Source: Elusimicrobiota bacterium
Lineage (GTDB): Bacteria > Elusimicrobiota > Elusimicrobia > Elusimicrobiales > Elusimicrobiaceae
DNA length: 64,000 nucleotides
Assembly (NCBI GenBank): GCA_029008615.1
Contig: JAQXJI010000006.1
Coordinates: forward strand, 62,001 to 126,000
Reading direction: 5' to 3'
Numbering within the stretch: the stretch's first letter is position 1; each line of letters starts with the position of its first letter. The translations under genes and the position numbers were made by a program. Below are positions 677 to 54,150 of the stretch, in pieces. Below the pieces are notes generated by a model. The model did no database searches, had not been told where the DNA came from, and saw only the letters and a program-made list of their open reading frames with translations.

Positions 677-2404
677 TTATGCGTATAAACTGCCTACACT
701 GCTTCCTTTGCAGGAATGTTCTCTGGTGTTAATGTCCTCAAAGACATAAGTTTTGGGCTTGCCTCTGTAACCTTCTTCATAGACGTTTGTTACGGGTTCG
801 ATCCTCATATAATATTCGCCGTCTAAAATAAATTCCATATTATTTCCGCGCATTTCCCCAGATCTGCTGGTTCTAATATTTCCGGTGACAAAGTTGCAGT
901 CCATAAGGATTCCGTCTTTAGTGCGTATTATGCCGCTTGGGTTAACGCGATACATAGCTGGTTTATCTTTGCTTCCTATATTTTTATAATAAGTCTTTTT
1001 ATAGTAGATGAAAGCCGGCAGTTTGCTTAAATTTTGTATTAATAAAGAGGGGTTGTTATTTCTTCCCCTATCCACCAAAGAAGAAGACGCATTTATCTTA
1101 AGGGAATTGCTTTTGCCGGGCACTTGCACCCATTCGCCGTCTTGCGCTTTGTATTGGTTAAATACATTAACGTCAAATACAACGTTTTGCTGATCCGAGA
1201 ATAAATTAAATACGTCAAGCATAGCCAAATCAAATTTATAATGTACGGTGGAATACCGTAAGTAAGTGTCTACGACGCGCAGACCGTAGAGCCTTCTTAA
1301 AGCGGTTTGGTGGACGGTGTCATAAGGATCTTTGCTCCAAGCGGAGGGGATGGGATCTTTAAGCTTGCCGAAGACGTTTGTCTCTCCGTCTTTTATAAGC
1401 TTTTGCAGAAAGGCCATATTGTCTTCCAAGGCGGTAAATCTGGTCAGCATTTCTTCAAAGGAAGCGTGCACCGCGTGTAAATTGGCTTTTTCAATGGCGG
1501 CATATATCGCTATTACACCTATGAAGTTCAATATTTTTTTGCCGTAATAGGCAAATCTGGGAAGCGACCAAAAAGCCAAAGCCGAAGAAGGCGCGGCGAT
1601 TGAAACTCCGTTAAAATTCCTCAAAGCTACTAAAGTGAATATGGACATTAAAATGGCGTCGTAGCGTTTGTTTTTGTTGATGCGGTCAATCTCTTTTTGG
1701 AGCGACACAAAACTTTTATAAGCCGGGCCGTATTTTAATCTTTCGTTTATAGAGTTTAACTCTTTGGCTATTAAAGCCTGAACTTGTTTGGGCGATTTTT
1801 TAAAATCGGGGAGCTGCTCGTATGCAAGCATATCGGCAGATTGTTTGTAAAGAGCAAAAGCCTCGTTTATCTTTGCCTGCGCGCTTAATCTGCTGAAGTT
1901 TTTATCGCTGGATGGGTTGCGCGACAGTCCGGAAGCGTTAAGTTTTTTCATCAGTTCCGTGCGGCGTTGTTTTAAGTTTGCTATTTCTTTTTCTTCCTGG
2001 GATAATCTCGAGCGTTGCAAAGCTTGGTCAATCCCTTTAGATTTTTTTATGAGTCTTTCAGGTATAATAGGGCGCACCACGCGGGTATTGTCTTGTGGTG
2101 CGGTCCTTTCCAAAAGGTGCTGCCTTTGTTCGCGGTTCATTTTTTCCATTTCAAGCTTTCTGATTTTCCCGTCTATTACGTTCAGCTCATGTCTTACTGG
2201 GTCGGCCGTTTTTTGTTTTTCAACAAACTGTTTGCTTACCGTAACTTCCTTAAAATAAGGATATACCGCCGAAAGCTTTGTGGTCTGCGCGCCTACCGGA
2301 ACGCCGAAATAATCCTGAGCGGACGTTTTGCCCTGTGCCAAAGAAAGCATCGGATAGGAAAAAGTTAAAGCCGTCGCCAGCAGTAATCTGATAAATAATT
2401 TCAT
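677..2404 (-). CDS. Secreted or envelope protein of unknown function (575 aa)
   Basis: I do not recognise the family. The ATG at 2404 is preferred because GAGGTG precedes it by a good distance and the protein then opens with a typical signal peptide (MKLFIRLLL... ending near LAQ). An earlier in-frame ATG at 2491 lies upstream of the predicted -35 box and is unlikely. Residues roughly 60-260 are charged and helical, rich in Lys, Glu and Arg. Two hydrophobic stretches follow (around IFTLVALRNF and FIGVIAIYAA), then a more beta-like C-terminal half ending near a lone cysteine. It is transcribed alone from a promoter carrying the 43-bp element shared with two other genes. Role unknown. Confidence 0.8.
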   Translation of the reverse strand: MKLFIRLLLATALTFSYPMLSLAQGKTSAQDYFGVPVGAQTTKLSAVYPYFKEVTVSKQFVEKQKTADPVRHELNVIDGKIRKLEMEKMNREQRQHLLERTAPQDNTRVVRPIIPERLIKKSKGIDQALQRSRLSQEEKEIANLKQRRTELMKKLNASGLSRNPSSDKNFSRLSAQAKINEAFALYKQSADMLAYEQLPDFKKSPKQVQALIAKELNSINERLKYGPAYKSFVSLQKEIDRINKNKRYDAILMSIFTLVALRNFNGVSIAAPSSALAFWSLPRFAYYGKKILNFIGVIAIYAAIEKANLHAVHASFEEMLTRFTALEDNMAFLQKLIKDGETNVFGKLKDPIPSAWSKDPYDTVHQTALRRLYGLRVVDTYLRYSTVHYKFDLAMLDVFNLFSDQQNVVFDVNVFNQYKAQDGEWVQVPGKSNSLKINASSSLVDRGRNNNPSLLIQNLSKLPAFIYYKKTYYKNIGSKDKPAMYRVNPSGIIRTKDGILMDCNFVTGNIRTSRSGEMRGNNMEFILDGEYYMRIEPVTNVYEEGYRGKPKTYVFEDINTREHSCKGSSVGSLYA

Positions 2405-2445: not shown

Positions 2446-2475
2446 ATAATAACACTAAAGAACAGAAGCCTGCAA
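2446..2475 (-). promoter_or_regulatory. Promoter of the 677-2404 gene
   Basis: On the minus strand TTGCAG (2475-2470) and TATTAT (2451-2446) are separated by 18 bp. The TTG of the -35 box is the last three bases of the conserved 43-bp element at 2473-2515. The ATG follows about 40 nt downstream with a Shine-Dalgarno sequence. Confidence 0.65.
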
Positions 2476-2515
2476 GAGCATAAAGACCCAAAAAAACTTG
2501 GGCCCTAAGTCCTAG
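2473..2515 (-). promoter_or_regulatory. Conserved 43-bp upstream element, copy A
   Basis: Read on the minus strand it begins CTAGGACTTAGGGCCC and ends GCTCTTG, where TTG starts the -35 box. It aligns without gaps to 6828-6870 and 53037-53079. GGCCCAA and TTGGGTC inside it can pair; the other copies change the arms but partly keep the symmetry. An RGGNC motif recurs at element positions 3-7, 11-15 and 27-31. I infer a binding site for an activator next to the -35 box. Confidence 0.65.
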
Positions 2516-6827: not shown

Positions 6828-6870
6828 TTGGGCCTTAAGGCCTATACTTTTTTAGGACTTTTAACCCTTG
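6828..6870 (+). promoter_or_regulatory. Conserved 43-bp upstream element, copy B
   Basis: Begins TTGGGCCTTAAGGCCT and ends CCCTTG, aligning without gaps to 2473-2515 (minus) and 53037-53079 (plus). The terminal TTG opens a -35-like TTGTAT (6868-6873). A weaker -10, TAAATT (6891-6896), follows 17 bp later in an AT-rich stretch. This is the most diverged of the three copies. Confidence 0.6.
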
Positions 6871-6951
6871 TATCAAAGACTTTTATTTAATAAATTTATT
6901 AATAGGAGTTTCGTTTTTTTATATTCTTTAAATGTTTGGAGAGTTTTGTTT

Positions 6952-7611
6952 ATGAAAAAAAATGTTTTTTCTTTGGCTGTTATTTTCGCTTTTATGCTGT
7001 GCGCCCTGCCCTCTTATGCCGATGTTACCGATAACTACTGCAGAATAAACGGCGTACGCTATACTATCGGTAATGTAATCGCCAAATTCGGCAACAATGC
7101 GGCCGCCGTAAAAGGCTGCTGCGCTTGCGGCACTTCACAATCGCTTTGCAATCCCGGCTATATGGAAGACTATGAAAGAACCGGCAAACACGATTATAAC
7201 CTTACCTTAATTGCGGCTAAACATAATCACTATCAATGCTTAAAATATTTGGTGGAAACTTGCAGAGGGCTTGTGGATAATTTTGCCTCTTCCAGAGATT
7301 TGGGCAGAATCCCCGAAGGGGAATATACTCAGCTTATGTATGCGGTCAAGAACGGCAATGTCGAAATGGTAAAATACCTTTTAAGTAAAGGCGCAAATGC
7401 AAACCGTAGGAATTTTTCCGGGGAAAGCGCAAAGGATATCGCTTCAAGAAAAGGAAATCAGGAAATAATCAACCTTTTAAAAAATACATCTTATACCAAT
7501 AATCTGGATCTTAAATACAAAAAAGAAATAATTGATACTCTCAGATCCATAGACTATGAAGACGAAATAGCTTTTGCAGGGCTTGAGGAATATTTTAAAG
7601 AATTAATTTAA
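6952..7611 (+). CDS. Secreted ankyrin-repeat protein
   Basis: A signal peptide (MKKNVFSLAV... to PSYA, about 23 residues) precedes a 219-aa protein. An early cysteine cluster (CCACG, with further Cys nearby) may form disulfides or bind metal. About two ankyrin repeats follow; the clearest is TQLMYAVKNGNVEMVKYLLS with KGANANRRN. The ATG at 6952 has GGAGAG upstream; an in-frame TTG at 6868 falls inside the -35 box and is rejected. It lies between two low-complexity paralogues and 22 nt before the next, so it probably shares their transcript. Its partner or target is unknown. Confidence 0.82.
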   Translation: MKKNVFSLAVIFAFMLCALPSYADVTDNYCRINGVRYTIGNVIAKFGNNAAAVKGCCACGTSQSLCNPGYMEDYERTGKHDYNLTLIAAKHNHYQCLKYLVETCRGLVDNFASSRDLGRIPEGEYTQLMYAVKNGNVEMVKYLLSKGANANRRNFSGESAKDIASRKGNQEIINLLKNTSYTNNLDLKYKKEIIDTLRSIDYEDEIAFAGLEEYFKELI

Positions 7612-53036: not shown

Positions 53037-53079
53037 TTAGGACATAAGGCCCATAACTGCGTGGGCCTTTCTTCTCTTG
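53037..53079 (+). promoter_or_regulatory. Conserved 43-bp upstream element, copy C
   Basis: Begins TTAGGACATAAGGCCC and ends TCTCTTG; aligns without gaps to 2473-2515 (minus) and 6828-6870. AGGCCCA (53047-53053) and TGGGCCT form a perfect 7-bp inverted repeat. It lies after a complete terminator, so it is not itself the terminator of the previous operon. It overlaps the -35 box. Confidence 0.68.
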
Positions 53080-53106
53080 TGCGGCGTTAGGTGCAATAAT
53101 TATAAT
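53077..53106 (+). promoter_or_regulatory. Promoter of the 53134 gene
   Basis: TTGTGC (53077-53082) and a perfect TATAAT (53101-53106), 18 bp apart, exactly as in the 677-2404 gene. The predicted leader is about 20 nt and contains CGGAGGGA. Confidence 0.7.
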
Positions 53107-53133: not shown

Positions 53134-54150
53134 ATGTCAGTTAAAAAAATTACGGCAATTTTAAGTTTTGTTTTTTTTGCGTCTTTTGGCGGGGCGTATG
53201 ATTTTAATTCTTTTTTGGAGCAAAACGGTGAACGTTCGGCTTCGCTTGACGCCGGGATTAAGGCTTTGTTTCCCGGGGCCGGGGCTAAAGACGTAAATTA
53301 TAAATATAATTATTCTCCGATAGTTTTTGAAATTGACACCCTCTATCAGCAGCATCTTTACTGCGATTATGAAGACGGACAAAAGATAAACCTGGATTAT
53401 AAAAACGCCGGTTTTTTCGGCTCTTCCGCCGGGGAATATCACGCCAAATGTTACGGTACTTTAATTAACAAAGATTTTATGATTACCCATAAAAATTGTT
53501 TGCAAATGCCTGTCGACAAAGAATACACTATCCCCGAAAGCACCGTTAATTTGGCTGAATATGAACCTATAAATACAAAGTTTAAAAAAGACGGACGCGA
53601 GCTTGTTTATAACAGGAAAAACAGCAAGAAGTTCAATAATTATTGGATTGATAAAAAAAGCGGAGCGGTTTTGCTTAAAGTAAGCGATTTATGCTTGCAG
53701 CAGGCAAATGCGCCGGCCAATGTCTGTTTGAAATTATGGGAATGGGCGACAGAGCCCGAAGCTCAAAATTTTACCGTAAATAGCAATTACGGCACGATAA
53801 TTTTATCCGACATAAGCCCCAAAGACAATATTCAAAATGCTTTGTCGGGCAAAGTGTTCTTCAATCATAAAGGGGAAAAGAAGGCGGCAGTCAAAGCCGC
53901 GCGCGGTTTGCTTACCCTCAAAGGCAAAGCCGAAAGAAGCTTTGTCGGCGAACCTGTTTTTTATAAGGCGGACGGCAGTAAAAATATTTTTGTGGGGATA
54001 AAAACGCCGAGCAATATCAATAATTGGGAGTATACCAAATCCGACAGCTACGCTTTATTTTCTCACGATTTTACCAAAATGATTAAGAAGAATGTTAATA
54101 CGGGCGGAGTCAGGCTGACTAAGGATTTGAAAGGGCAAACTTTACTTTAG
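53134..54150 (+). CDS. Secreted trypsin-fold (S1-like) protein with all three catalytic positions lost
   Basis: 338 aa from ATG 53134 (CGGAGGGA upstream); an in-frame TTG at 53077 lies in the -35 box and is rejected. A signal peptide (ITAILSFVFFASFGGA) leads. Cys106 and Cys122 in CYGTLINKDFMITHKNC are 16 residues apart, exactly as the Cys42-Cys58 bridge of chymotrypsin, but the His57 position is Asn121. SGAVLLKV matches DIALLKL with Gly for Asp102. FVGEPVF matches GDSGGPVF with Val271 for Ser195. The fold assignment is from motifs only. Probably a binding or decoy protein. Confidence 0.68.
   Translation: MSVKKITAILSFVFFASFGGAYDFNSFLEQNGERSASLDAGIKALFPGAGAKDVNYKYNYSPIVFEIDTLYQQHLYCDYEDGQKINLDYKNAGFFGSSAGEYHAKCYGTLINKDFMITHKNCLQMPVDKEYTIPESTVNLAEYEPINTKFKKDGRELVYNRKNSKKFNNYWIDKKSGAVLLKVSDLCLQQANAPANVCLKLWEWATEPEAQNFTVNSNYGTIILSDISPKDNIQNALSGKVFFNHKGEKKAAVKAARGLLTLKGKAERSFVGEPVFYKADGSKNIFVGIKTPSNINNWEYTKSDSYALFSHDFTKMIKKNVNTGGVRLTKDLKGQTLL

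What the first reader, a model, noticed from the sequence alone, without database searches (positions are those of the whole stretch)
53037..53106. A 43-bp element fused to the -35 box marks a three-gene regulon of exported proteins
53037-53079, 6828-6870 and 2515-2473 (minus) align over 43 bp with no gaps, although the genes they serve are unrelated. Conserved blocks: (C/T)T(A/G)GG(A/C)C, then TA(A/G)GGCC(C/T)A, then T(A/G)GG.C(C/T)TTT, then C(T/C)CTTG. The final TTG is the start of the -35 box in each, and the -10 box is 17-18 bp further. RGGNC recurs at element positions 3, 11 and 27. The downstream genes all encode signal-peptide proteins: an unknown 575-aa protein, an ankyrin protein and a degenerate trypsin-fold protein. 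This is what an activator site with fixed promoter geometry looks like.
Basis: partly seen in the sequence, partly recalled or inferred. Interest (0 to 1): 0.82.

Follow-up and report, generated by a model that had tools for sequence, protein, structure and literature searches.

The report
Class-wide operator for exported-protein genes
The 43-bp element is a real DNA switch, two regulator-binding sites exactly 24 bp apart that end in the promoter, found in front of genes for exported proteins in nearly all sampled members of one Elusimicrobiota class and probably read by a conserved, unstudied two-component regulator.

Summary
The three 43-bp copies belong to a family with 15 or more sites in this genome. 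Sites occur in 52 of 56 sampled genomes of the same class and in none of 63 from other classes of the phylum (probably Elusimicrobiota). The "conserved blocks" are two tandem 16-bp palindromes, TRGGNC-N4-GRCCYA, with dyads exactly 24 bp apart. The proximal one has a degraded right half that runs into the TTG of the -35; a -10 follows 17-18 bp later. There is no RNA covariation. In loci fetched after the models were built, 31 of 43 sites with a gene precede a predicted signal-peptide gene, and 8 more a signal plus a later helix (background 26% and 10%). The site resembles the DosR box. The best regulator candidate is a NarL/DosR-type response regulator encoded with two histidine kinases beside Flp/Tad pilin genes. 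An orthologue is present in every site-bearing genome of that sample and in no other; it keeps DosR's three DNA-contact residues; and it is exceptionally diverged in the one same-genus genome with almost no sites. Activation and regulator identity are inferred, not shown.

The parts
53037..53079 (+). Element copy 1: palindrome P1 53038-53053, palindrome P2 53062-53077, TTG of the -35 at 53077-53079
   Evidence: Sequence; model match in C6:115037-115080; palindrome columns from the 55-site logo
53101..53106 (+). Predicted -10 box TATAAT, 18 bp after the -35 hexamer
   Evidence: Sequence
53134..54150 (+). Target gene 1: 338-aa signal-peptide protein, no Pfam family; paralogue at C23 also carries the element
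6828..6870 (+). Element copy 2: P1 6829-6844, P2 6853-6868, TTG 6868-6870
   Evidence: Sequence; model match in C6:68828-68871
6891..6896 (+). Predicted -10 box TAAATT, 17 bp after the -35 hexamer
   Evidence: Sequence
6952..7611 (+). Target gene 2: 219-aa signal-peptide protein with ankyrin repeats
   Evidence: Pfam Ank_2 3e-23
2473..2515 (-). Element copy 3 (read 2515 to 2473): P1 2514-2499, P2 2490-2475, TTG 2475-2473
   Evidence: Sequence; model match in C6:64473-64515
2446..2451 (-). Predicted -10 box TATTAT, 18 bp after the -35 hexamer
   Evidence: Sequence
677..2404 (-). Target gene 3: 575-aa signal-peptide protein of unknown family; a paralogue at C7 also has the element

Best explanation
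The element is a double-stranded DNA operator fused to a sigma-70-type promoter. Two dimers of a NarL/DosR-type response regulator would bind two tandem palindromes 24 bp apart, with dyads at about -42.5 and -66.5 from the inferred transcription start. The proximal dimer overlaps the weak -35 and would recruit RNA polymerase as a class II activator. The target set is almost entirely genes for exported proteins. The most likely regulator is a 221-aa response regulator ('class B', G000:C10:6411-7076 minus, outside the window) encoded after a dCache histidine kinase and a receiver-histidine-kinase hybrid and before Flp/TadG/TadE-like pilin genes, so a signal at the cell envelope would switch on a set of exported proteins. 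Shown computationally: the motif, its spacing and promoter geometry, its target class, its distribution, and the co-occurrence and co-divergence with class B. Inferred: binding by class B, control by phosphorylation, activation rather than repression, and the start-site positions.
For: Logo of 55 sites gives two palindromes with contact-like conservation. Palindrome pairs sit exactly 24 bp apart 45 times, next commonest spacing 5 times; permuted matrices give none. -10 at 17-18 bp in 30 of 55. No RNA covariation beyond shuffles. Targets in later-fetched loci: 31 of 43 signal-peptide plus 8 signal-plus-helix, against 26% and 10% background. Present in 52 of 56 genomes of the class, 0 of 63 in other classes. 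Class B orthologue (215 bits or more) in all 52 site-bearing genomes, none above 150 bits in the other 67. G009 has one half-element and a class B only 61% identical (other same-family orthologues aligned 85-97%, another family 64-70%), branch 1.55 against median 0.027, while its PurB is ordinary. Class B keeps the equivalents of DosR K179, K182, N183 (PMC5999986), and the site resembles TTSGGGACTWWAGTCCCSAA (PMC2275270). OmpR-type regulators are absent from three site-rich genomes.
Against: No site lies near any GerE regulator locus examined, so no autoregulation. Co-occurrence of class B and sites is confounded by shared ancestry. G009 keeps the K-K-N triad although it lost nearly all sites, is 83% complete in 240 contigs, and also lacks class A. 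Other unlisted DNA-binding proteins were not surveyed exhaustively. A few sites face housekeeping genes (dnaX, recG), explained here only by the near-palindromic element being read on both strands. No expression, start-site or binding data.
Confidence: 0.58

Rival explanations
1. The operator and exported-protein regulon are as described, but a different DNA-binding protein reads it: the class A NarL-type regulator or a helix-turn-helix protein not surveyed here.
For: No genetic linkage of the sites to class B; class A is also missing from G009, which has almost no sites.
Against: Class A-like regulators are not universal: G018 and G080 carry sites but show only one GerE or class B-like match, the class B orthologue, above threshold in the case of G018 and one match at 1e-10 in G080. 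Class A lacks the DosR-type contact residues. OmpR-type and RHH_1 proteins are absent from several site-rich genomes.
Confidence: 0.3
2. The same operator serves repression: a dimer on P2 would occlude the -35 and keep exported-protein genes off until a signal arrives.
For: P2 overlaps the -35, which is compatible with occlusion.
Against: The -35 is reduced to TTG, as at promoters that need an activator; the palindromes lie upstream of the -35 rather than over the -10 or start; the inferred P2 dyad near -42.5 is a class II activator position (established knowledge of LuxR- and CRP-type promoters).
Confidence: 0.2
3. The element is an RNA structure (hairpin, terminator or leader) rather than a protein-binding DNA site.
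For: The inner arms can fold as GGCC(T/C)A / T(A/G)GGNC in single copies.
Against: Pairing and covariation do not exceed shuffles across 39 sequences; the element is upstream of its own -35 and -10; no Rfam match.
Confidence: 0.02
4. The copies are a dispersed repeat (REP-like or mobile) that happens to lie upstream of genes.
For: Dozens of copies per genome.
Against: Conservation is confined to contact-like positions and flanks differ; copies sit at a fixed distance from a -10 and ahead of exported-protein genes, including orthologous targets in different species.
Confidence: 0.01

Closest known systems
DosR/DevR regulon of Mycobacterium tuberculosis (DosR box TTSGGGACTWWAGTCCCSAA)
   Same: Palindromic box of two G-rich half-sites around a 4-bp A/T core, many scattered single-gene targets, NarL/LuxR-type response regulator; class B aligns with DevR over its whole length and keeps K179/K182/N183 equivalents (PMC2275270, PMC5999986)
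   Different: Half-site is TRGGNC rather than GGGAC; a rigid 24-bp tandem with the proximal box degraded into the -35; targets are exported proteins, not a hypoxia set; different kinases and pilin neighbours; no experimental binding
VraR and related NarL-family regulators of cell-envelope stress
   Same: Best sequence matches in the PDB, receiver plus GerE-type helix-turn-helix over the full length
   Different: VraR has T where class B and DosR have N in the recognition helix; its known sites are not of the TRGGNC type (from memory)
GerE of Bacillus (half-site TRGGYY) and LuxR-type lux boxes centred at -42.5
   Same: Half-site text and class II position are alike (from memory, a lead and not a test)
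   Different: Single-domain or quorum-sensing regulators; no fixed 24-bp tandem of this kind

Membership tests
Regulon with a shared operator | Same site upstream of many unlinked genes at fixed promoter distance | tested here: met
Regulon with a shared operator | Targets share a property beyond chance | tested here: met
   31 of 43 signal-peptide genes plus 8 signal-plus-helix against 26% and 10% background, p about 3e-10 for the first; predictor is a simple rule
Regulon with a shared operator | Transcription starts just after the predicted -10 and depends on the site | not testable with these tools
   No transcript data available
NarL/DosR-type (GerE, PF00196) response-regulator operator | Palindrome of short G-rich half-sites about one helical turn apart | tested here: met
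   TRGGNC-N4-GRCCYA in 55 sites
NarL/DosR-type (GerE, PF00196) response-regulator operator | Matching regulator encoded in every genome with the site | tested here: met
   52 of 52, and 0 of 67 without sites at the same score; confounded by phylogeny
NarL/DosR-type (GerE, PF00196) response-regulator operator | Regulator binds the site | not testable with these tools
   Needs footprint or gel shift
DosR regulon proper | GGGAC half-sites as in TTSGGGACTWWAGTCCCSAA | tested here: not met
   Half-site is T(A/G)GGNC; resemblance only, so it is not filed as a DosR regulon
Structured RNA element | Compensatory covariation in the stem | tested here: not met
   No excess over shuffles; no Rfam hit at the site
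MetJ-like 8-bp repeat operator (ribbon-helix-helix) | Ribbon-helix-helix regulator in all genomes with the site | tested here: not met
   RHH_1 not found in 6 of 10 site-bearing genomes
OmpR-type response-regulator operator | OmpR-type regulator in all genomes with the site | tested here: not met
   None in G001, G048, G034, which have 27, 39 and 45 matches

The most novel reading that the evidence does not exclude
A single ancestral two-component system, encoded beside Flp/Tad pilin genes, controls a rapidly renewed set of lineage-specific exported proteins across most of a bacterial class through a rigid tandem operator: a master switch for the secreted interface of these bacteria, with targets replaced freely while the switch stays fixed.
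Probability: 0.4. Interest if true: 0.8.

Novelty: new member of a known kind. Interest (0 to 1): 0.62.

Why it matters
Searches of the open literature held here found no description of this motif or of such a regulon in Elusimicrobiota (the library is incomplete). A class-wide operator with a named candidate regulator gives a ready list of co-regulated exported proteins, most without a known family, and marks them as one functional set. That makes the question of how these bacteria deploy their secreted proteins directly testable in a culturable relative.

Tried and rejected
RNA hairpin or terminator reading: rejected for lack of covariation and because the element is upstream of its own -35. 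Rfam: only tRNAs in the window. MetJ-like 8-bp repeat reading (ribbon-helix-helix): the spacing can be written that way, but RHH_1 was not found in 6 of 10 site-bearing genomes. OmpR-type regulator: absent from three genomes rich in sites. Sigma-54 activators: reported absent from Elusimicrobium minutum (PMC3162934), and the promoter looks sigma-70-like. Autoregulation as a pointer to the regulator: no site near the GerE regulator loci examined. Trypsin fold of the protein at 53134: no Pfam family and a low-confidence model (pLDDT 45), so no fold search was run.

Full report
Observation. The three copies exist where stated, align without gaps over 43 bp at 28-30 identities, and end in TTG with a -10 hexamer 17-18 bp further. 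A degenerate pattern finds 9 places in the whole 1.66-Mb genome with up to 3 mismatches and none when read backwards. A matrix from the seven best copies finds 14 hits at 14 bits or more in 407 kb, against a mean of 0.5 for column-shuffled matrices. The element is real and far from chance.

Size of the family. A sequence-only model from seven copies finds further copies in the genome, and those not used for training lie about 30-110 bp ahead of genes that begin with a signal peptide. The same holds in other species of the genus and order. A second model from 39 copies was run over 119 genomes of the phylum. Matches at E<=0.01 occur in 52 genomes, all in the same class (52 of 56 sampled), with 2-46 per genome, and in none of the 63 genomes of other classes. 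Because the element is near-palindromic, some sites are counted on both strands. The nearest named relative of a window protein is an Elusimicrobiota genome, so the phylum is probably Elusimicrobiota; this is an inference.

Anatomy. The logo of 55 sites shows two tandem 16-bp palindromes. P1 is TRGGNC-N4-GRCCYA. P2 is TRGGNC-YTTT-TNCYCT, with a degraded right half that runs directly into TTG. Across the loci fetched, palindrome pairs sit exactly 24 bp apart in 45 cases; the next spacing is 48 bp with 5; permuted matrices give none at 24. A few sites have three copies at a 24-bp period. The best -10 lies 17-18 bp after the -35 hexamer in 30 of 55 sites. If the start is about 7 bp after the -10, the P2 dyad is near -42.5 and the P1 dyad near -66.5. 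An 18-bp pattern for P2 plus TTG hits 15 times in this genome and 12 times in G048, with no control hits in either, and some of these have no P1, for example C7:13893 and C7:15529.

DNA, not RNA. The inner arms can pair as a hairpin, but across 39 sequences pairing and covariation do not clearly exceed shuffles, nor for the dyads themselves. The element also lies upstream of the promoter it is fused to. Rfam finds only tRNAs in the window.

Targets. A simple rule% of genes in the 407-kb sample signal-peptide proteins and a further 10% proteins with an N-terminal signal plus a later helix. In the own genome and genus, 46 of 51 sites at 20 bits or more with a gene downstream precede a signal-peptide gene, training sites included. 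In loci fetched after the models, mostly from genomes not used to build them, 31 of 43 do, plus 8 of the second class (p about 3e-10 for the first figure; two loci were fetched twice). At least two of the four exceptions read like signal peptides by eye. Almost all targets tested in this genome have no Pfam family; the exceptions are an ankyrin protein, an OmpA-family lipoprotein and a protein with a glutaminase-like domain. Orthologous targets in different species keep the element.

Which regulator. The palindrome resembles the DosR box TTSGGGACTWWAGTCCCSAA (PMC2275270), which suggested a NarL-type regulator. The genus has two such response regulators, class A and class B. Class B is encoded after a dCache histidine kinase and a receiver-kinase hybrid and before Flp/TadG/TadE-like pilin genes, an order largely kept in another family of the order. 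In the 119-genome sample every site-bearing genome has a class B orthologue at 215 bits or more and no other genome exceeds 150 bits. This is confounded by phylogeny. A partly independent sign comes from G009, in the same genus, which has one half-element only. Its class B is 61% identical to ours, against 85-97% for the other same-family orthologues aligned and 64-70% for another family, and it sits on a branch of 1.55 against a median end branch of 0.027. Its PurB is not unusual (59%, against 57% in G048), and its other operon proteins are not below the other family's values. Class B keeps the residues aligned with DosR K179, K182 and N183 (PMC5999986), which class A and class C lack. OmpR-type regulators and RHH_1 proteins are missing from several site-rich genomes. 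No site lies near the regulator loci examined, so the link remains circumstantial.

Verdict. I rate the operator and exported-protein regulon as well supported computationally (about 0.93), class B as the regulator at about 0.6, and activation rather than repression at about 0.75. The kind of system is known; this member is new as far as the open literature held here shows, and its class-wide reach with mostly unknown exported targets makes it worth experimental work.

Noticed in passing
L190 17482-17527; L175 12471-12516; L182 10439-10484: Elements shared by divergent genes: the near-palindromic array carries a CAAGG/CCTTG (-35-like) end on each side, as in a bidirectional promoter; at L175 the opposite gene is dnaX.
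   Followed up: partly
G000:C7:13893 and 15529 (L175 3891, 5527); G009:C47:14479 (L292): P2-only versions (TRGGNC-N4-NNCYCTTG plus -10) ahead of signal-peptide genes, so the distal palindrome may be dispensable.
   Followed up: partly
L245 1502; L281 803; L051 1475; L249 1479: Three palindromes in a row at an exact 24-bp period in other families of the class.
   Followed up: no
L222 4567-12556: The candidate regulator's operon (dCache kinase, receiver-kinase hybrid, NarL regulator) is followed by a small Flp-pilin-like ORF and TadG- and TadE-like genes, which suggests a link between Tad pilus biogenesis and the exported-protein regulon.
   Followed up: partly
window 677-2404; L018; L047: Otherwise dissimilar exported targets share a short motif (A/Q)DNTRVVRP after the N-terminal region, of unknown meaning.
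   Followed up: no
L024 1578-2726: An exported target with a glutaminase-like domain (Gln_deamidase_2, 3e-7) in its C-terminal part.
   Followed up: no
G046, G063, G107, G078: Four genomes of three families in the same class have neither the element nor a class B orthologue; whether this is loss or prior absence was not resolved.
   Followed up: no
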